The notes under the pieces are model-generated. The model saw only the letters and a program-made list of their open reading frames with translations. It was not told where the DNA came from and did not search any database. From Streptococcus sanguinis (GTDB lineage: Bacteria > Bacillota > Bacilli > Lactobacillales > Streptococcaceae), in assembly GCF_003943655.1 (NCBI RefSeq), contig NZ_RJMM01000001.1:168483-204228 (forward strand): a DNA stretch of 35,746 nt, in the 5' to 3' direction. The position numbers and the translations under genes were made by a program. This document shows, one piece after another, positions 14,098 through 22,300 of this stretch. Numbering within the stretch: the stretch's first letter is position 1; every line of letters starts with the position of its first letter.

Positions 14098-14936
14098 CGA
14101 GAAAAATCATCTTTCTGGATGTGGACGGTACCATCATCGACTATGATAATCATATACCGGAGTCTGCTGTTGTCGCCATTCGCAAGGCACGAGAAAAGGG
14201 CCATCTGGTCTATGTCTGTACCGGCCGCAGCAAGGCTGAGATGCCGCCGGAAATTTGGGATATCGGCTTTGATGGGATGATTGGTGGCAACGGCTCCTAT
14301 GTGGAGCATGAGGGGGAGGTTATTCTGCACCAACTGATTCCGCGAGATGTCGCTAAAAGGCTAGTCGACTGGCTTCAAGAGCGGGGGCTAGAGTTTTACC
14401 TAGAGAGTAATAACGGTCTCTTTGCAAGCAAAGGCTTCCGCGAAGCAGCGCGGCCGGCGCTTCGGACCTACGTCCTTGGAAAAGGTGTTAATCCAGAAAA
14501 AGTAGTAAATATGGAGGCAGAAGAAGCTCTTCACGGCCTGGTTTATGGTGGGAAGCTCTATCGGGACGACCTGAACAAAGTCAGCTTTATCCTAAAGAGT
14601 TACCAAGACCATCTGGACTCCAAACGGGCTTTTCCTGAGCTCAAAGCAGGTACTTGGGGTGGCAAGGGCGAGCATGCCCTATTTGGTGATTTGGGAGTCA
14701 AAGGCATTACCAAAGCGCATGCTATTGAGGTTTTCTTGAAGCATCTGCATGCTGACAGGGCGTATACTCTGGCTTTCGGTGATGCCAAGGTTGATATTCC
14801 TATGCTGGACTATTGTCAGGTCGGGGTCGCTATGGGAAATGGCGGAGCGGAAATCAAGGCCATGGCCGATCTGGTGACAGACTCGGTCAGCCAAGACGGT
14901 CTCTACAAGGCCTTTGAAAAGTTAGAACTCATCTAA
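14094..14936 (+). CDS. Cof-type HAD-IIB family hydrolase
   Basis: A 280-residue phosphatase of the haloacid dehalogenase superfamily. Motif I is FLDVDGTIID at residues 7-16 with the nucleophile and acid/base aspartates. Motif II is in YVCTGRSK, the lysine of motif III is probably in VKGITKAHAIEVF, and motif IV is FGDAKVDIPMLDY. The cap lies in the middle, as in the Cof/YidA group. Likely substrates are small phosphorylated metabolites such as sugar phosphates or flavin or pyridoxal phosphates, but sequence does not decide. GAGGAAG precedes the ATG. It is followed after 11 nt by a histidine phosphatase gene, so the two phosphatases form an operon. Confidence 0.92.
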   Translation: MTRKIIFLDVDGTIIDYDNHIPESAVVAIRKAREKGHLVYVCTGRSKAEMPPEIWDIGFDGMIGGNGSYVEHEGEVILHQLIPRDVAKRLVDWLQERGLEFYLESNNGLFASKGFREAARPALRTYVLGKGVNPEKVVNMEAEEALHGLVYGGKLYRDDLNKVSFILKSYQDHLDSKRAFPELKAGTWGGKGEHALFGDLGVKGITKAHAIEVFLKHLHADRAYTLAFGDAKVDIPMLDYCQVGVAMGNGGAEIKAMADLVTDSVSQDGLYKAFEKLELI

Positions 14937-14947
14937 AGGAGATATGA

Positions 14948-15517
14948 ATGATGGCAAAAACTCTTTATCTGATGCGGCATGGGCAGACGCTTTTCAACCT
15001 ACGCCATAAGGTACAAGGCTGGTGTGATGCTCCTCTGACTGATTTTGGCATCTATCAGGCCAAGGTGGCGGGGAAATATTTTAAGGATGCTGGAATTATT
15101 TTTGACGATGCTTATAGCTCTACTCAAGAGCGGGCCTGTGATACCTTGGAATTGGTAACAGACGGTAAGATTCCCTATAAGCGTATCAAGGGACTCAAGG
15201 AGTGGAACTTCGGGACCTTTGAAGGGGAAAGCGAAGACCTCTTCGTCCCCTATGGCGGAGAAGGTGTGTACCAGGTCGGTGAGCGCGTGCTAGTTACTCT
15301 GACTGAGGTAATGGAGCAGGCGGATGCAGAGCCAGTCTTGGCCGTCAGCCATGGTGGTGCCATGTGGGCCTTCTATCTCAAGATTGCAGCTCAAGCTCTG
15401 GATCCCAAGGTGCGCTTTGGCAACTGCGCCATTTGTCATTACCATTATGAGCAGGGATATTTTAAGCTGGTAGAAGTCATTGACCCGCTGACGGGTAGTG
15501 TGTATGAGTGTGAATGA
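14948..15517 (+). CDS. histidine phosphatase family protein (phosphoglycerate mutase-like)
   Basis: A 189-residue enzyme with the catalytic RHGQT motif near residues 10-14, a conserved arginine in STQERACDTLE, the acid/base glutamate region EWNFGTFEGE, and the second catalytic histidine in VSHGGAMW. It lacks the insertions of true dPGM glycolytic mutases, so it is probably a broad phosphatase. Two ATG codons are possible (14948 and 14951). The second has the better distance to AAAGGAG and gives MAKTLYLMRHGQT. It is cotranscribed with the HAD phosphatase, and a bidirectional terminator follows 60 nt downstream. Confidence 0.9.
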   Translation: MMAKTLYLMRHGQTLFNLRHKVQGWCDAPLTDFGIYQAKVAGKYFKDAGIIFDDAYSSTQERACDTLELVTDGKIPYKRIKGLKEWNFGTFEGESEDLFVPYGGEGVYQVGERVLVTLTEVMEQADAEPVLAVSHGGAMWAFYLKIAAQALDPKVRFGNCAICHYHYEQGYFKLVEVIDPLTGSVYECE

Positions 15518-15577
15518 AAAAGCAAATTTTTTAAACTGCTCATAGTAATGAAGAATTAGAAAGATTATCACTAGAAT

Positions 15578-15605
15578 AAAAACCTCAGATTTTTCTGAGG
15601 TTTTT
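15578..15605. terminator. Bidirectional terminator between convergent genes
   Basis: AAAAACCTCAGA (15578-15589) and TCTGAGGTTTTT (15594-15605) form a perfect 12-bp stem with a TTTT loop, giving a T-run on both strands. It serves the histidine phosphatase gene (plus) and the 4-TM protein gene (minus). Confidence 0.93.
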
Positions 15606-15608
15606 GGT

Positions 15609-16088
15609 TTATACTTGACTGTAGGTTTCACGACGACTTAGTTTTGCGTCTTCTTTTTTGCTGGGTATTGGTTGAGCTTGCTCTTCTGCCTTCCACTCAC
15701 TTCGGGTAAAGACCATGGAGAGTAGTGTCAGAGCTGCAAAGGATGATCCCACATACCAGTAGGGCATATCCAGTGTCGTGGAGCGACCAGATAGATTGAC
15801 GATGCCACGGAAGAGCATACCGGCTGTCATGATGGCTACAGCTGAGTTCCAGAGGTTGAGGCTGAGCCGAGAGAGATTAGGGATGACCTTCATAAAGAGC
15901 AGGAGGAGGATGCAGCCCGCTAGAGGAATAGCAAATAGATAGTGCATGTGACTAGATGTTTCGCCGAAGCTGAAGGATTCATAGATTCTGCTGAAAGCAA
16001 AGAAGAAAATAGTTAATAGTGCGTAGATAAGGGCTGTTTTTCTAAAACGTTTTTTGCTGGGATTAGTAACCGATGTAGACAATATCAC
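15609..16088 (-). CDS. four-helix membrane protein of unknown function
   Basis: A 159-residue membrane protein with hydrophobic helices at about residues 18-35, 48-68, 82-100 and 107-126, and a charged cytoplasmic-looking tail (EEQAQPIPSKKEDAKLSRRE). I do not recognise the family. The start is taken as GTG at 16088, preceded by AAAGG and overlapping the end of the upstream phosphodiester glycosidase gene by 26 nt. A TTG two codons later is also possible. The overlap and shared strand show it is the last gene of the GT2-GtrA operon, so it probably works at the membrane with those two proteins. Confidence 0.7.
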   Translation of the reverse strand: MILSTSVTNPSKKRFRKTALIYALLTIFFFAFSRIYESFSFGETSSHMHYLFAIPLAGCILLLLFMKVIPNLSRLSLNLWNSAVAIMTAGMLFRGIVNLSGRSTTLDMPYWYVGSSFAALTLLSMVFTRSEWKAEEQAQPIPSKKEDAKLSRRETYSQV

Positions 16089-16974
16089 TCACCGACCTTT
16101 CTGAGATAGTATTTCCGTTGGTTGTAGGTTTGTTAATGACCTGACCGTTAAAGTAAAGTGTAGAGGAGCCGCCGCCATCGAGGTTATAGGCGGTCTTGAC
16201 ACCATAAGATTTCATGATTTCTGCCATCTGGTAGAGGGAAAGCCCCTCGCTTTCTGTGGTGCGTCCGTCTGAAACAATGATGATATAGTGGTTTTCATCA
16301 ATGATACCGATAGCTGTCCGAGGATTGGAAGACATGGACTGGCCGACTTCGGAGTTGGTATCAACGACAATTTCACCATTTTCTACGAGAGATGGGCCGA
16401 AGGTCAAGAGATTGACCACGCCGTCTTTAACCAGTTGATCGGCAGAGACTTGATCTTCATAGATAATCTTGAGGGAGCCGTCTTTGTAAATAGCCAAATC
16501 ACCATTGCTGGAGTCTTCTCGGACGGTATCGCGGTAGACGACGCCATTGCGGATGACATAGCCAGTCGTATTGGCCCCATAGTAGTCGCCGTTGACCGCT
16601 AGGATAGCATTGTTGCTGGCAGCTGTTTCCGAAGTTTTGGCTGTGACATTGTTTCCGTAGGTATTTTGGGCAAAGGCGGTTTTCAGGTATTCCGATGAGC
16701 TGACGGTCACATCAGCGATGTAGACTTGGGTGTTGCTGACGGTCTTTTCAGTCAATGTGACCGAGATGTTGTCGTCTGAATAGCTGGTATCCGTCACTGT
16801 CGCTGTCTCAGCAGCCTTGCTGGCAGCCTCGGCATTGGACGACGAACTTGTGCTTGAAACCGTCGAAATGGTCTCTGCGATGACGAAGGTTTTCAGCATG
16901 GAGTAGCTGAAGGAAGCTGTCAGAAGCAGCCCGAAAATGGAGGCGTAGGCATAGCGTTTCTTTAAAAATTTCAT
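16063..16974 (-). CDS. phosphodiester glycosidase (NAGPA/DUF2233) family protein
   Basis: A 303-residue protein with an N-terminal membrane anchor at about residues 10-32, then an S/T/A-rich linker with SSTSSSSN, and an extracellular NAGPA domain. The domain markers are AILAVNGDYYGANTTGYVIR, NPRTAIGIIDE, IIVSDGR and the signature YNLDGGGSSTLYFNG. Family members cleave the bond between a sugar and a phosphate in a phosphodiester, as in uncovering mannose-6-phosphate or acting on bacterial polymers. The start overlaps the stop of the GT2-GtrA gene by ATGA. A surface glycopolymer or lipid-phosphate sugar is the likely substrate, by inference from the neighbour. Confidence 0.88.
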   Translation of the reverse strand: MKFLKKRYAYASIFGLLLTASFSYSMLKTFVIAETISTVSSTSSSSNAEAASKAAETATVTDTSYSDDNISVTLTEKTVSNTQVYIADVTVSSSEYLKTAFAQNTYGNNVTAKTSETAASNNAILAVNGDYYGANTTGYVIRNGVVYRDTVREDSSNGDLAIYKDGSLKIIYEDQVSADQLVKDGVVNLLTFGPSLVENGEIVVDTNSEVGQSMSSNPRTAIGIIDENHYIIIVSDGRTTESEGLSLYQMAEIMKSYGVKTAYNLDGGGSSTLYFNGQVINKPTTNGNTISERSVSDIVYIGY

Positions 16975-18014
16975 GATGCGGTGTGTGTCCTTTCCTTAAA
17001 AATAAATCTCTTTTGGACCATCCAGGAGACGATGAAGAGCAAGATGCCGACGATGATTTTGACAATCAGAAGATTAAGACCAAAGACAGCATAGAAGAGG
17101 CGAATCAGCAGTGTGTCCAGGATAAAGAGCACCACAGCTAAGCTGAAATAGCCAGTTCCTGTCTTGAGTATACTGTCGTCGTTCTTAAAGACCAGCTTTT
17201 TATTGGTCGAATAGTTAAATATTGAGCTGGTCACTCGAGCAATCCCGTTAGCTAAAAGAATTCTCAGGCTGGTCGGCACAGCAGCTAAAAACAAGAGAGC
17301 CAGTGCATAGACGATGTAGTCTACGATAAAGCTGCTGAGAGAAGTCAGGGCAAATTTGAAAATATTTTTATAAATCATGAGTCCATCCCGAATCGGCCGG
17401 AAGTGGGAGCCTTGATTGTCATTGATATAGACCGTCTCAATAGGCACTTCCAAAATGGGATATTCCTTGCTGGCTTCTAAGAGCATGTTCATTTCATACT
17501 CATAGCGCTGGCCCTCTACCTTTAGCATAAATGGAATCATGTTGGTCGTAAAGGCTCGTAAGCCTGTCTGAGTATCGGAGACACCCACGCCAGTCTGAAG
17601 CCTGAAGAGAGCCCGAGTCAGACTGTTGCCGAAGCGGCTGCGCAGAGGCACCTTGCCAGTAAAGGCGCGTGCTCCCAGAATCAGCTGATTGGGATTTTCA
17701 GAAGATTTGGCCGCTACGCGGAAAACATCCCAGACCTTGTGCTGGCCATCCGCATCTGCTGTTACCACCGTTCCATAGATCTTCAGTGCTTGGATAAAGG
17801 TAAAAGCAGTCTTCAGTGCTTGCCCCTTGCCTTGATTGACCTGATGACGGAGCACGATCGCGTACTGCTCTGCCTGCTCAAAGACTATCTGGCATTTGGA
17901 AGAGCTGCCGTCATCGATAACAATGATATGAAAATCACTCTTATGGTGAATTTTTTTTATCAGCTTAATAAGATTATAATCAGGCTCATAGGCCGGAATC
18001 ACTAGATAATCCAT
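16971..18014 (-). CDS. GT2 glycosyltransferase fused to GtrA-like membrane domain
   Basis: A 347-residue fusion. Residues 1-215 are a family 2 glycosyltransferase of the polyprenyl-phosphate sugar synthase type, with LVIPAYEPD, the nucleotide-sugar aspartates in VIDDGSS (34-36) and TADADGQH (86-92), and DTQTGLRAF. Residues about 217-345 are a GtrA domain of four helices ending WMVQKRFIFKE. The first half probably loads a sugar onto undecaprenyl phosphate and the GtrA half helps move it across the membrane. I place the start at 18014 (MDYLVIPAY), since AAAGAGG is 7 nt upstream. The ATG at 18020 would leave one nucleotide. First gene of a three-gene overlapping operon. Confidence 0.9.
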   Translation of the reverse strand: MDYLVIPAYEPDYNLIKLIKKIHHKSDFHIIVIDDGSSSKCQIVFEQAEQYAIVLRHQVNQGKGQALKTAFTFIQALKIYGTVVTADADGQHKVWDVFRVAAKSSENPNQLILGARAFTGKVPLRSRFGNSLTRALFRLQTGVGVSDTQTGLRAFTTNMIPFMLKVEGQRYEYEMNMLLEASKEYPILEVPIETVYINDNQGSHFRPIRDGLMIYKNIFKFALTSLSSFIVDYIVYALALLFLAAVPTSLRILLANGIARVTSSIFNYSTNKKLVFKNDDSILKTGTGYFSLAVVLFILDTLLIRLFYAVFGLNLLIVKIIVGILLFIVSWMVQKRFIFKERTHTAS

Positions 18015-18075
18015 ATCCATACCTCTTTCTTAGATGATTTGTAGAAAGTATACAGACTGTGGCTTAAAAATTCCT

Positions 18076-18110
18076 AATATAAGTTAGTTTTAAGAAAATG
18101 TTAACATTTT
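18076..18110 (-). promoter_or_regulatory. Promoter of the GT2-GtrA operon with palindromic operator candidate
   Basis: On the minus strand TTAACA (18099-18104) and TATATT (18076-18081) are 17 bp apart, both matching consensus at five of six positions. The -35 lies inside a perfect 16-bp palindrome, AAAATGTTAACATTTT (18095-18110), so a dimeric repressor there would block polymerase. The leader is about 55 nt. Confidence 0.65.
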
Positions 18111-18301
18111 TTTAAGGAAAGAGCAGAGGTAGAATGTGGTAGAAATGCGATGGGAAGAGGGGTTGAGGTGAAGTTGTGGGATGAATTATAGAGTATGAAA
18201 GGTGATTTATGTATATACTTATAAAAACTAGAAAATTCAAATGTTGGCAATCTATTACTATGATTCAAATATAAATATTGGGAAAATATTTTCCTGCAAC
18301 G
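18111..18301. other. Intergenic spacer without a recognisable gene
   Basis: I find no gene in this part of the roughly 320-nt gap between the GT2-GtrA and PrsW genes. It is purine-rich on the plus strand and contains one perfect 14-bp palindrome, GGAAAATATTTTCC (18281-18294), next to the terminator. No convincing start codon with a ribosome binding site is present. Confidence 0.5.
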
Positions 18302-18330
18302 AAAAAACGACCATAACGGTCGTTTTTTTG
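18302..18330 (-). terminator. Terminator after the PrsW-family gene
   Basis: AACGACC (18306-18312) pairs with GGTCGTT (18318-18324) around a 5-nt loop, flanked by A- and T-runs, so it can act on both strands. It lies just after the PrsW-family stop codon on the minus strand. Confidence 0.88.
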
Positions 18331-18333
18331 ATA

Positions 18334-19155
18334 TTATTCCACTTCCAATTCTTCTTGGTCGATTTTATGGGCTGTTCGGTAGGCTTGGTAAAAGATAAAG
18401 ACAGCCAGAGCAGTCATGGCAGGTACGATGATTGGGATGTCCGTTTCGATAGCAGTCAGCGGTGAATTCCAGAAGAAGTGGAGAACGAAGGCTGCTAGGA
18501 AGTAGAAGAGCCCCACTCGGAAATAATTTTTCTGAGTTTTGGCATAGCGTAGCATGAGAGCCAGACCGAGAGTGGTTAGGGCGGTGTAGAGCCAGTGAGA
18601 GGCAATGCCGCCAGTGATACGTCCTAGAATCCCAGAGATGGTGAAGGAGAAGCCTTCGGGCAGGTCAGAGAGGATATAAGAGAAATCTTCGCTAATCTGA
18701 AAGCCCATGCCGGCCGTTATACCCAGCATCAAGAAAGATTTGAGCTTTTTGACTGGGACTAGATAGACAGCGAAGGCAACTGCCAACAGCTTAAGGGGTT
18801 CTTCAACCAGCGGAGCTGCGATGGCATTTTCTAGGTCACTGAGCAAGGTGTTTGGGAAGCTCGTGCTGACCCACTCGTGGATATAGGTGTTGGCCAAGCC
18901 AGAGGTCCAGCCAGAAATGAAAAGACCACCTAGCAGAGCTACCCCAAGGCTAAGTGCAGGCGTCTGCCATTTTTTGCCCAGTTGGCGAATCAAGAGCAGG
19001 GCAGGGATGATATAGAGCAAGGCCAGAAGGGCTGACAGTCCGACAATCCCATAGGAAGTACCTGACATACTGCCAGTAGTATAGGCTTGTGTCTCGTATT
19101 CTAAGCCAATCGCGCTCAGAAGGAGAAAAATGAAAAGAACAATATTTTTCTTCAT
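18334..19155 (-). CDS. PrsW family intramembrane metalloprotease
   Basis: A 273-residue polytopic membrane protein with about eight helices. The PrsW family motifs are present: EEPLK at residues 118-122, GFQISEDF at 151-158 and LHFFWN at 225-230, which together would bind the zinc and act in proteolysis within the membrane. In Bacillus, PrsW makes the first cut in the anti-sigma factor RsiW; many other members have unknown substrates, and some belong to the CAAX-protease-like group that matures or resists bacteriocins. No sigma or anti-sigma gene is near. It is transcribed alone, divergently from the large SARP-type regulator. The ribosome binding site is weak (AAAGTTA). Confidence 0.88.
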   Translation of the reverse strand: MKKNIVLFIFLLLSAIGLEYETQAYTTGSMSGTSYGIVGLSALLALLYIIPALLLIRQLGKKWQTPALSLGVALLGGLFISGWTSGLANTYIHEWVSTSFPNTLLSDLENAIAAPLVEEPLKLLAVAFAVYLVPVKKLKSFLMLGITAGMGFQISEDFSYILSDLPEGFSFTISGILGRITGGIASHWLYTALTTLGLALMLRYAKTQKNYFRVGLFYFLAAFVLHFFWNSPLTAIETDIPIIVPAMTALAVFIFYQAYRTAHKIDQEELEVE

Positions 19156-19186
19156 AAGTAACTTTCTAAAATTTTATTTTCATCCT

Positions 19187-19249
19187 AGTATAACAAAAAA
19201 ATCCTAAATAAAACCAATTTAAAAACTGGAAATTAAGGGCTGGTATAAT
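19187..19249. promoter_or_regulatory. Divergent promoters of the PrsW-family and SARP-type genes
   Basis: On the minus strand TGTTATACT is an extended -10 (TATACT at plus positions 19187-19192) about 31 nt before the PrsW-family ATG. On the plus strand TGGTATAAT is also an extended -10 (TATAAT at 19244-19249) about 66 nt before the regulator ATG. Neither has a good -35 at normal spacing. Both therefore look like extended -10 promoters placed back to back. Confidence 0.6.
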
Positions 19250-19315
19250 ACTTTACTTGCCAAACTGTCTCTTTTTGTTTATATTAGTTCTATAAGGTTT
19301 CTTGGAGGCGTTTGC

Positions 19316-22300
19316 ATGACGAAAGATCTGTTGAGGTTGAAATTGCTGGGAAGTCCGAGTGTCTTTCTCAATCAAGAGGAAGTCTTTTTTCCTTTTGCCA
19401 AAATCAATGCTCTGCTTTACTATCTCCACATCAATGGAGCAGTCAATCGAGAGGAGATTGCAGGAATCCTCTGGGAAAACAAGGACAATCAGACCGCCAA
19501 AAAGAATCTGCGCAATACAATTTATCAAGCTAACAAGCTACTAGGTGGGGAATGGATTGTCGCTCCCAACCGAACTGTTCTGTCGCTTAATCCCGAGTGT
19601 GCGATTGAAAGTGATGTAGAACTTTTTACGGATCATCCTGCGGAGCATCTGTCTCTCTATCAGGGTGATTTTCTGCAGGGCTTCTATCTCAAGGATAGCG
19701 AGGCTTTTGATTACTGGGTGTCTAAGATGCGGACGCGATATGAGCAGCTTTATATCCAGGCCTGCTACCAACAGATGGAAACAGAAAAAGACCAGCTGGA
19801 TTTGAAAGAGGCTGAGCGGAATTTGCGCCGCTTGATCAGCATTGATGAGTTTGACGAGAAGAACTATCATCTGCTCATGAAGCTCTATCAGGATAATGAC
19901 CGGCCTGGCAAGGTGATAGAGACCTACTACAAATTGGTCAATATTTTGGATAAGGAACTGGGTATTAGTCCTACGGAACCTATCCAGCAACTATATCATG
20001 AAGTGCTTGCCAAGGACCGTAGCGAGCGCAAGACTAAGCAGTTTCTGCGTAATACGGACCACTTTTTCGGACGGGTCGATGAAATCAAACGCTTGGAATC
20101 TTATTTCTCTAAAGTGATAGAGACTCAGGAGGCTCGTGCTCTGGTTCTAGTCGGTGGTACTGGTATTGGAAAGCGGACAGTGACTCGTCAAGTACTGGCC
20201 AACCAGACCAAGTATTTCCAGATTGTTATGGCCGAGTGCTTCAAGGAAGAGATGAAGTCAGAGCTCCAGCCTTGGCGTGGTTTGCTGGACGGCCTGGGGG
20301 ACTTGGTTATTCAGCACCAGATTCTCTCTATCAGTCAGTGGCAGGTCATTTTGGAGAGTTATTTTCCCATTTTGACAGGCGGCACTTCTGGTCTTCAGTT
20401 GGATGCGGACAAGCTGGCTCAGTTTGTCGTGGATATTCTGCAGAAGATTTCTAAGAAAAAAGCTTTGATAATCTTGATTGAGGACTGTCACTGGATGGAT
20501 AAGTACAGCGTTGCTGTCCTAGAGCAGGTTATGAATCATTTGACCGGCTATCCTGTGGCCTTTGTGCTGACCAAGCATCTGAGCACCCCTTCTTATTTGG
20601 AACATTTTTTCAATCACCTGCTGGTACGCAATAAGCTGGGATTTATCGAGCTGCAGCCGCTGAATTTTAAGGATAGTGCAGCTTACTTGCAAGCCCAGAC
20701 AGGTCAGTTAGCCATATCTGAAGAACGCCTTGAGGATATTTATCGGGTCAGCCAAGGCATCCCTTTCTTCCTGTCGGAATACGCTGAGCAGCTCCTACGA
20801 GGAGAGAAGTTTCATCCGCTGACTCCGGCCATCAAGGCTAAGCTGTCCTTGAAGCTGGATTACCTGAGCAGTCAAGAAGAGGAGTTGGTGGACTATCTGG
20901 CTTGTTTTAGGGCTCCTGCGTCGGTTTCGCTCTTAGCTAGGTTATTAGGCCTGCCGATGGAAGAAGTGGTCGAAACCACTGAGGAGTTTGGACGGAAGCA
21001 GCTATTGATGGAAGAGGAGCAGGGCGAGGACTTGGTAGTGCGGTTCAGTCAGGAGCTTTTGAGAATCTACGCCTATGAGCGCTTGTCGCTTGCCAAGAAG
21101 CGAATGCTGCATCATCAGATTGCCCAAGGCATGGAAGACCAGCTGGGAGACTCTCTCTATCATGCTCAGTTGCTCAATGAAATCGCCTATCACTACAAGA
21201 TGTCCAAGCAGCCCATCAAGTCTCTGGAGTACGAGCTGCATTATCTCGAAGCTACTCTGAAGTTTCATCACGAGCTCTTTCCGATTTATTCACGGGAGTT
21301 TGGTTTTATCGAAAAGACGGATGATAGCAATCAGTCCGCAGTTTTAGACCAGTTTGACCGTATCCGTCGGGAGATAGAGGGCTTAGAGAGAAAACATCAG
21401 AATCACAAGGATTTTCAGCTATTGGTTCTCCGCTTTCTCTATCTAGAAGGGCGCTATGCTATCCGGACGGGGAATTACCAGCAGGGAATGGACAATATCC
21501 AGCAGGTGATTATTTCAGCCAAGGAGCTGCAGCAGATGGATTTTCTCCTAGAAGGCTATCGGCAGATGATTTATTACTGCATCCAGACGGAGAATATCTC
21601 TGAGATGCGTTACTATACGGAGTTGGCTCTAGATGCTTCGGTCCAGGCCAACAATCACGAGGCCATTGCTATCAATCTCCGACTCAAGGGGCTCTATCAT
21701 CTCATGATTGGAGATGAGGAGCAGTCGCTTCACCATCTCTACCAGTCTATTGATTGTTTCAGCCTGACGTCTTCGCTGCGTTCCAAGTATTCAATTCAGA
21801 TTGCGGCGGCTCTAGACTATCTGGCGGAGATTGAGCAGATTCGCGGGAATTTCACGACAGCTCTGGCTCATCAGAAGGAGGCCATTGAGCTGACGGAAAA
21901 TAAAACAGCGGAGCCTTCGATTTTTGCTTTTTACATCGGCTTGGGTATGACCTATTATCAACTGGGAGATTATGAGCAGGCGGAGCGGATTTTCTTCAAG
22001 GCTAAAACAGCTCTGAAGTCCCTCAGTTTCCCTTGGAAAGAGACCCAGTTGGAAGTGTATTTGGCCTTGATTGGCTGTGAGAAGGGAGATTTCCAGCCGG
22101 TCCTTGACCTGCTGCGGAAAAAGGATAGCCTCATTAGTCGCTATGGCAATCCGCGGGACAAGGGGCTAATCTACTATCTGATGGCTGTGATTAAGTATCG
22201 CCTGCTGACTGGAAGCATAGAGGAGTCTGCCTTTGAAGGCTTACTGGCTCAGGACTTTGATTCCTACTATGAAACGGCTAAAAGACAGCTCAATCCTTAT

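What the first reader, a model, noticed from the sequence alone, without database searches (positions are those of the whole stretch)
15609..18014. GT2-GtrA, phosphodiester glycosidase and 4-TM protein operon: possible surface glycan modification system
Three overlapping genes encode an enzyme likely to make and flip undecaprenyl-phosphate sugar, an extracellular anchored enzyme of the class that removes a sugar from a phosphodiester, and an unknown 4-TM protein. Known GtrA/GtrB systems need a polytopic GT-C transferase to place the sugar on its acceptor, and none is here. The set may therefore be a make-and-trim cycle on a lipid carrier or teichoic-type polymer, with the unknown protein as a new component.
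Basis: partly seen in the sequence, partly recalled or inferred. Interest (0 to 1): 0.58.

Follow-up and report, generated by a model that had tools for sequence, protein, structure and literature searches.

The report
Lipid-carried sugar operon with phosphodiester glycosidase
A three-gene unit in oral streptococci and many other Firmicutes appears to load a sugar onto the cell-wall carrier lipid, flip it outside and use it up there with an enzyme type not previously linked to that job, so it may be a new way of moving sugars onto, or off, the bacterial surface.

Summary
In detail: three overlapping minus-strand genes encode a GT2-GtrA fusion, a membrane-anchored NAGPA-fold phosphodiester glycosidase, and a 4-TM protein of no Pfam or NCBIfam family.

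The set is a real unit. 4TM follows NAGPA in 80 of 80 named loci; GT2-GtrA lies just upstream in 57. In one 398-genome Firmicutes sample the genes nest: all 11 genomes with 4TM are among 18 with this NAGPA subfamily, and all 18 have GT2-GtrA (19 of the other 380 do). Only 1 of 67 genomes with other NAGPA subfamilies has it. In the 7 without 4TM the order is reversed, still adjacent.

No GT-C was recognised beside the set (25 of 48 multi-TM neighbours scanned; one matched nothing). YfhO is missing from 12 of the 18 genomes, PMT_2 from 6, both from two 99%-complete ones; other GT-C classes were not searched.

Best reading: NAGPA, with 4TM, consumes the flipped undecaprenyl-phosphate sugar outside, transferring it in place of a GT-C or hydrolysing it. 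Transfer, hydrolysis and a GT-C in trans are not separated. VTC, DUF4956 and Cthe_2159 genes are frequent neighbours elsewhere.

The parts
16971..18014 (-). GT2-GtrA fusion: polyisoprenyl-phosphate glycosyltransferase domain plus GtrA-type flippase domain (ORF opens at 18020; better-placed ATG at 18014)
   Evidence: PF00535, PF04138 over cut-off; weak matches to 5mlz DPMS and to ArnC structures; D89, D91 and DTQTG invariant in 28 of 28; start context
16063..16974 (-). membrane-anchored, probably extracytoplasmic NAGPA-fold phosphodiester glycosidase
   Evidence: PF09992 E 5.6e-43; 6u11, 6pkg, 3ohg by sequence; N128, D130, D236, D266 invariant in 47 of 47; L097 and L099, not in that alignment, have Glu at 236; model and fold match
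15609..16088 (-). 4-TM protein of undescribed family, GTG start overlapping the end of the NAGPA gene
   Evidence: family alignments; model; no Pfam or NCBIfam match at E up to 0.001; topology and conserved outward positions
18076..18104 (-). promoter-like site upstream of GT2-GtrA
   Evidence: TTAACA-17-TATATT, 10 of 12; consensus match only
15577..15606 (.). terminator-like hairpin at the end of the operon
   Evidence: 13 pairs, loop 4, T tract; near-symmetrical, so it may serve both strands
18300..18330 (.). terminator-like hairpin between the PrsW-like gene and the operon; likely boundary of the unit
   Evidence: 13 pairs, loop 5, T tract

Best explanation
The operon is a largely self-contained pathway for a lipid-carried sugar. 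The GT2 domain puts a sugar on undecaprenyl phosphate at the inner face and its fused GtrA domain helps carry the product to the outer face (inferred from the families). The anchored NAGPA-fold enzyme then breaks the sugar-phosphate bond of that flipped lipid outside the membrane, with the 4-TM protein as its membrane partner that presents the lipid head group or the acceptor (inferred). I favour transfer of the sugar to an acceptor, i.e. NAGPA standing in for the GT-C transferase of GtrA/GtrB systems, over plain hydrolysis that only returns the carrier lipid; the two are not separated here. Shown: gene content, folds, conserved order, nested co-occurrence. Inferred: substrate, direction, acceptor, role of the partner.
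For: Nested dependence in one 398-genome sample: 4TM 11 within NAGPA subfamily 18 within GT2-GtrA 37 (18 of 18 against 19 of 380, Fisher 2.7e-21, not corrected for phylogeny; the 18 come from 9 families). Specific to this subfamily: 1 of 67 genomes with only other NAGPA-family genes has GT2-GtrA. Order reversed but still adjacent in 7 of 7 genomes without 4TM. NAGPA-4TM genomes without adjacent GT2-GtrA carry it elsewhere: 4 of 4 and 18 of 19. In G492, G508, G504 and G463 a divergent NAGPA-family gene directly follows GT2-GtrA. Within Streptococcus 33 of 59 genomes have all three genes, 23 none, 3 part. Fold and core residues match solved NAGPA. YfhO is missing from 12 of the 18 genomes; G203 (intact adjacent set, 99% complete) and G120 lack both YfhO and PMT_2. 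No multi-TM neighbour recurs beside the set. Conserved 4TM positions sit at or near the outer face.
Against: Characterised NAGPA is a hydrolase of alpha-linked GlcNAc-1-phosphate diesters, whereas GtrB is taken to be inverting (PMC4728340, passages) and so would give beta-linked lipid sugars; the stereochemistry may not fit. PMT_2 is present in 12 of the 18 genomes and YfhO in 6, so 16 of 18 have at least one GT-C candidate; other GT-C classes were not searched, and some known GT-Cs carry no Pfam domain (PMC8035078, passages). One multi-TM neighbour (L183 4056-6149) matched no family and could be a GT-C, and 23 of 48 such neighbours were not scanned. In 98 relatives YfhO is nearly universal (92); the one near-complete streptococcus without intact YfhO (G002) has an interrupted GT2 gene, so it is no counter-example and could even hint at joint decay. 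No biochemical evidence exists for any step. The 4-TM fold gave no confident structural relative.
Confidence: 0.5

Rival explanations
1. Carrier-lipid valve: NAGPA only hydrolyses the flipped undecaprenyl-phosphate sugar, returning the carrier and releasing the sugar outside; an outer-face counterpart of B. subtilis UshA. (A version of the best explanation without transfer.)
For: Known NAGPA chemistry is hydrolysis; there is precedent that cells release undecaprenyl phosphate from monophosphate-linked sugars (UshA, PMC11898649, abstract and passages). This NAGPA subfamily is not found without GT2-GtrA in the 398-genome sample.
Against: UshA is described as an alpha/beta hydrolase on the cytoplasmic side, so not related. 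GT2-GtrA occurs without this NAGPA subfamily in 19 of 37 genomes, so it does not need such a valve. A dedicated make-and-destroy operon has no evident benefit.
Confidence: 0.2
2. Ordinary multi-component glycosylation with a trans-acting GT-C: a GT-C coded elsewhere places the sugar; NAGPA trims a phosphodiester-linked sugar on the finished polymer.
For: In 98 relatives YfhO is nearly universal (92) and PMT_2 is somewhat commoner in streptococci with the set (21 of 33 against 8 of 26, p 0.018). 16 of the 18 NAGPA-subfamily genomes have YfhO or PMT_2. GT-C genes can be unlinked (PMC7117936, section 13).
Against: YfhO is missing from 12 and PMT_2 from 6 of the 18, and both from two 99%-complete genomes. 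YfhO is as common without the set (26 of 26) as with it (31 of 33) in streptococci.
Confidence: 0.25
3. The set is an accessory of a larger exopolysaccharide or polyphosphate-related system with VTC, DUF4956 and Cthe_2159 proteins, and NAGPA acts on that product rather than on the lipid.
For: VTC, DUF4956 and Cthe_2159 within 6 kb of NAGPA-4TM in 9, 11 and 13 of 62 non-streptococcal named loci, and one or more of them near it in unnamed G005, G020, G057 (streptococci) and G075; VTC co-occurs in Streptococcus (28 of 33 against 5 of 26, p 7e-7). CotH, polyphosphate polymerase and DUF4956 genes accompany Pel loci (PMC7112168, passages).
Against: None of the 18 named streptococcal loci has these genes nearby, 5 streptococci with the set have no VTC, and the NAGPA link to GT2-GtrA is tighter. 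Phylogeny not corrected.
Confidence: 0.15

Closest known systems
GtrA/GtrB/GtrX and Gram-positive multi-component transmembrane glycosylation systems (CsbB-GtcA-YfhO and relatives; PMC8035078, passages)
   Same: GT-A polyisoprenyl-phosphate glycosyltransferase plus GtrA-type domain, proposed to make and flip a lipid-linked sugar
   Different: Fused GT2-GtrA; no GT-C recognised in the unit; a NAGPA-fold enzyme and an unknown 4-TM protein instead
L. johnsonii FI9785 241-242 (GtrA-GtrB needed for glucan EPS1; PMC7117936: abstract, opening part, sections 8 and 13)
   Same: GtrA-GtrB pair without a glycosyltransferase neighbour, needed for a surface glycan
   Different: Separate genes; no NAGPA or 4-TM partner mentioned in the parts I read; mechanism of polymer formation unknown there
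[quoted passage not shown] PF09992)
   Same: Fold and core residues
   Different: Asp130 in NGDYYG (47 of 47) where the aligned vertebrate enzymes have Gly; N-terminal anchor; consistent genomic link to a lipid-sugar synthase
UshA (YqjL) of B. subtilis, undecaprenyl-phosphate sugar hydrolase (PMC11898649, abstract and passages)
   Same: Proposed breakage of the same kind of lipid sugar
   Different: Described as an alpha/beta hydrolase, cytoplasmic side, SigM regulon
Dolichol-phosphate-mannose synthase of Pyrococcus furiosus (5mlz; organism recalled)
   Same: GT2 fused to a GtrA-like membrane domain
   Different: Mannose enzyme; weak sequence match only (E 5e-05)

Membership tests
Multi-component transmembrane glycosylation (GtrA/GtrB/GT-C) | GT-A polyisoprenyl-phosphate glycosyltransferase | tested here: met
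   PF00535 over cut-off; D89, D91 and DTQTG invariant in 28 of 28; activity not tested
Multi-component transmembrane glycosylation (GtrA/GtrB/GT-C) | GtrA-type flippase domain | tested here: met
   PF04138 over cut-off, residues 222-341
Multi-component transmembrane glycosylation (GtrA/GtrB/GT-C) | GT-C transferase in the same gene unit | tested here: not met
   In the window no GT-C lies next to the set. In 110 loci with the NAGPA subfamily, 48 multi-TM neighbours within 5 kb fall in 41 groups, the largest of 5; 25 of 48 scanned, none a GT-C family, one (L183 4056-6149) without a match
Multi-component transmembrane glycosylation (GtrA/GtrB/GT-C) | GT-C transferase anywhere in the genome | tested here: inconclusive
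   YfhO in 6 of 18 and PMT_2 in 12 of 18 NAGPA-subfamily genomes (own genome; the rest); G203 and G120 have neither; other GT-C classes not searched
NAGPA / phosphodiester glycosidase (PF09992) | Family profile and fold | tested here: met
   PF09992 147.5 bits against cut-off 25; Foldseek E 5.7e-15 to 6pki
NAGPA / phosphodiester glycosidase (PF09992) | Cleavage of a sugar-1-phosphate diester | not testable with these tools
   Core residues conserved; no activity data
UshA undecaprenyl-phosphate sugar hydrolase | Alpha/beta hydrolase fold, cytoplasmic side | tested here: not met
   NAGPA fold with an N-terminal membrane helix; the outer location is predicted
Any Pfam or NCBIfam family for the 4-TM protein (DUF2871 nearest) | Significant profile match | tested here: not met
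   No match at E up to 0.001 for any of 46 rows in Pfam or NCBIfam; window protein 16.7 bits against cut-off 27.4 for DUF2871; 7 of 46 rows match it weakly, best E 0.0077
MAPEG-like or other four-helix membrane folds for the 4-TM protein | Shared fold | tested here: inconclusive
   Best Foldseek E 0.49; VIA Z at most 9.7, in the range of common helical bundles
Pel-locus accessory set (CotH, polyphosphate polymerase, DUF4956, DUF4832) | VTC and DUF4956 next to the set in streptococci | tested here: inconclusive
   0 of 18 named streptococcal loci, but beside or near it in unnamed streptococci G020 and G057; pel genes, CotH and DUF4832 not searched

The most novel reading that the evidence does not exclude
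A GT-C-free extracytoplasmic glycosylation machine: a NAGPA-fold enzyme, held by a new 4-TM partner, uses the flipped undecaprenyl-phosphate sugar as a donor and transfers the sugar to a surface acceptor. That would make the phosphodiester-glycosidase fold a new kind of lipid-sugar-dependent glycosyltransferase, spread through streptococci, Clostridia and, without the 4-TM part, a large-genome Bacilli lineage.
Probability: 0.3. Interest if true: 0.82.

Novelty: new variant of a known kind. Interest (0 to 1): 0.6.

Why it matters
Surface sugars of Gram-positive bacteria affect phage adsorption, immune recognition and antibiotic response (recalled), and extracytoplasmic glycosylation of their wall polymers is thought to end with a GT-C transferase. 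Here is a widespread, uncharacterised unit that should make the donor lipid but carries a phosphodiester glycosidase instead. If that enzyme uses the lipid sugar, it is either a new class of transferase or an outer-face route to recover the carrier lipid, both directly testable. The 4-TM family gets a first functional setting, and GtrA/GtrB pairs without a GT-C neighbour, such as those of L. johnsonii, get a candidate class of partner to look for.

Tried and rejected
PrsW-like protease (18334-19155) as a fourth member: rejected. A terminator-like hairpin separates it, and in the 101 sequences searched (window and L091-L190) it was seen only in the window, L111 and L110.

RNA element in 14900-19400: none at gathering scores.

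A GT-C hidden in the gaps between 4TM and GT2-GtrA in G020, G005, G057 and G052: not found; the gaps hold VTC, DUF4956, Cthe_2159, a transposase, an anchored surface protein or small unassigned frames.

Multi-TM neighbours as GT-C: 48 reading frames (300 aa or more, at least 6 hydrophobic windows, within 5 kb) in 110 loci fall in 41 groups, the largest of 5, which includes a cation ATPase. 25 of the 48 were scanned: transporters, ABC and FtsX permeases, SecDF, SpoIIE, sensor proteins, a polysaccharide flippase-like protein (L187), a weak alpha/beta hydrolase match (L179), and one without any match (L183 4056-6149). The other 23 were not scanned.

4-TM fold as a clue to function: no confident match in the PDB; families not listed there are not excluded.

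G002 as a streptococcus with an intact set but no YfhO: rejected, its GT2 frame is interrupted (first read only one strand). GT2 frames also appear broken in G057, G158 and L117; they were still counted as present.

Print: searches (2 papers, both listed; 2, both listed; 20 of 74 listed; 15 of 397 listed; 25 of 440 listed), in a library of open-licence PubMed Central papers, listed none that treats a bacterial phosphodiester glycosidase as partner of GtrA or of a lipid-linked sugar, judged from titles, abstract openings and term counts; unlisted and subscription papers were not seen. Das et al. 2013 on DUF2233 is not held.

'Just upstream' allows a gap up to 1.2 kb (L145 has a frame in between). 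L170 was missed by that filter and added by hand (56 became 57). One search was given 19 of the 23 named loci without an adjacent GT2-GtrA (L131, L134, L167 and L177, short contigs or edges, left out). Genome sets were copied by hand from the tables. The E-value cuts (1e-70 NAGPA subfamily, 1e-50 GT2-GtrA, 1e-20 4TM) were chosen after seeing the gaps; G330's 4TM hit (8e-4) and G465's NAGPA hit (5e-47, no GT2-GtrA) fall outside them. Three weak NAGPA hits among the 98 relatives (G015, G036, G085) were dropped.
Full report
What is there. The window lies in a Streptococcus; the closest named locus found is S. sanguinis SK355, 98% identical in the NAGPA protein. Three minus-strand genes overlap: GT2-GtrA (16971-18014/18020), NAGPA (16063-16974) and a 4-TM protein (15609-16088). 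Terminator-like hairpins at 15577-15606 and 18300-18330 and a promoter-like site at 18104-18076 suggest a unit of its own (consensus matches only). Sequence and fold put the second protein in the NAGPA family. The third belongs to no family of Pfam or NCBIfam: no match at E up to 0.001 in any of 46 relatives.

Conservation of the unit. In 98 relatives the 4-TM protein was found in 37 and a strong NAGPA match in 36; in all 36 the two are adjacent (coordinates). GT2-GtrA is directly next to them in 31, within 5 kb in 4 (G005, G020, G052, G057) and on another contig in 1 (G026); in a few, such as G002 and G057, its frame is broken. The 37th, G029, keeps only the 4-TM gene. In Streptococcus alone, 33 of 59 genomes have all three genes, 23 none, and 3 part: G029 (4TM), G037 and G058 (GT2-GtrA, beside a GT2 synthase cluster with a PilZ domain shown in G037). 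Among 26 streptococcal loci the set sits in 6 upstream and 8 downstream settings, so the order is not kept by the neighbourhood.

Further afield. A scan of named genomes with the NAGPA profile gave the best 80 of 578 loci, 18 Streptococcus and 62 others, mostly Clostridia by name. 4TM follows NAGPA in 80 of 80. GT2-GtrA lies within 1.2 kb upstream in 18 of 18 and 39 of 62 (L170 added by hand). Of the 23 without it beside them, 19 genomes were searched and 18 hold a strong GT2-GtrA elsewhere, as do the unnamed G278, G303, G351 and G492.

Nested dependence. In one sample of 398 Firmicutes genomes, 4TM is in 11 (E below 1e-20), this NAGPA subfamily in 18 (E up to 1e-70) and GT2-GtrA in 37 (E up to 1e-50). 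The 11 lie within the 18 and the 18 within the 37, against 19 GT2-GtrA genomes among the other 380 (Fisher 2.7e-21; no correction for shared ancestry; the 18 span 9 families). The link is specific: of 67 genomes with only other NAGPA-family genes, 1 has GT2-GtrA. In the 7 genomes with this NAGPA but no 4TM (G119, G120, G158, G163, G316, G430, G471) the order is NAGPA then GT2-GtrA, adjacent in all 7, with the GT2 frame broken in G158. In G492, G508, G504 and G463 GT2-GtrA is followed by a divergent NAGPA-family gene. Keeping the pair through an order change, and pairing with another NAGPA subfamily, argue for a working link rather than hitch-hiking. I conclude that NAGPA acts in the GT2-GtrA pathway and that 4TM depends on NAGPA. 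Yet GT2-GtrA also occurs without this NAGPA (19 of 37), so it has other uses.

No GT-C recognised in the unit. In 110 loci with the NAGPA subfamily, 48 multi-TM reading frames lie within 5 kb; they fall in 41 groups, the largest of 5. 25 of the 48 were scanned: none matched a GT-C family and one (L183 4056-6149) matched nothing. Genome-wide, YfhO is in 92 of 98 relatives, with or without the set (31 of 33 and 26 of 26 streptococci). Among the 18 NAGPA-subfamily genomes YfhO is absent from 12 and PMT_2 from 6; 16 of 18 have one or the other. G203, 99% complete with an intact adjacent set, and G120, also 99%, have neither. Against this, GT-C proteins without a Pfam domain exist (PMC8035078, passages) and other classes were not searched; and G002, the one near-complete streptococcus without an intact YfhO, has an interrupted GT2 gene. 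A GT-C in trans is weakened, not excluded.

Mechanism. GtrB-type enzymes put a sugar on undecaprenyl phosphate and GtrA-type proteins are thought to flip it (PMC4728340 and PMC8035078, passages). The product is a sugar phosphodiester, the general bond class that NAGPA enzymes cut. The NAGPA here keeps the core residues of the family, with Asp at 130 (47 of 47; Gly in the aligned vertebrate enzymes). The 4-TM protein is N-in, C-in by K/R counts (means 3.63, 0.15, 2.30, 0.65, 2.30 for the five non-membrane stretches from N to C), with conserved Y36, E37, S40, S45, M48, G95 and G101 at or near the outer loops, where NAGPA's domain would lie. Transfer would explain why an acceptor-facing membrane partner is kept; hydrolysis is the known chemistry and has a functional, unrelated precedent in UshA (PMC11898649, abstract and passages). 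A point against both is that known NAGPA cuts alpha-linked GlcNAc-1-phosphate while GtrB is considered inverting. The sugar and the acceptor are unknown.

Wider setting. VTC (PF09359), DUF4956 (PF16316) and Cthe_2159 (PF14262) genes, one or more of them, lie near the set in unnamed streptococci (G005, G020, G057) and in G075, and in Clostridia (9, 11 and 13 of 62 named loci within 6 kb), not in the 18 named streptococci. VTC also co-occurs in the genus: 28 of 33 with the set, 5 of 26 without. Polyphosphate-polymerase and DUF4956 genes accompany Pel loci in streptococci and Clostridia (PMC7112168, passages). The meaning is open.

Verdict. A real, conserved and, in the searches made, undescribed unit; a new variant of GtrA/GtrB-type lipid-sugar pathways in which a phosphodiester glycosidase is the genomic partner. 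The step it catalyses on the lipid is inferred, not shown.

Noticed in passing
L207 5420-9092 (G000:C13): Own genome has a VTC-DUF4956 pair directly downstream of a small regulator-like gene and a 4-TM-window membrane protein that look like BlaI and BlaR1 (by eye, no family search).
   Followed up: no
L223, L225, L227, L235: A divergent NAGPA-family gene directly follows GT2-GtrA in four Firmicutes genomes (G492, G508, G504, G463).
   Followed up: partly
L100, L101, L102, L238: GT2-GtrA paralogues sit before a large GT2-like protein (GT2 and PilZ domains shown for L101 only) and, in L100, L101 and L238, a 13-15 TM protein (no Pfam match in L101), with a GGDEF or EAL gene shown near L101 and L100: probably a separate c-di-GMP-linked exopolysaccharide system with a candidate GT-C-like protein.
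   Followed up: partly
window 18334-19155; L110 7840-8646: A PrsW-like intramembrane protease lies upstream of the set in the window and in S. sanguinis SK355 (L111) and downstream of it in G023 (L110); 3 of 26 streptococcal loci.
   Followed up: yes
L103 6212-6565 (G029): The 4-TM gene stands alone, NAGPA and GT2-GtrA missing: a likely relic.
   Followed up: partly
L162, L165, L176, L202, L205: Genes that look like a response regulator and sensor kinase pair lie beside NAGPA-4TM or the VTC cluster in several Firmicutes; the kinase was confirmed by Pfam only in L202.
   Followed up: partly
L183 4056-6149: A 698-residue frame with 15 hydrophobic windows and no Pfam match near a NAGPA-4TM set; could be an unrecognised GT-C or a chance frame.
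   Followed up: no
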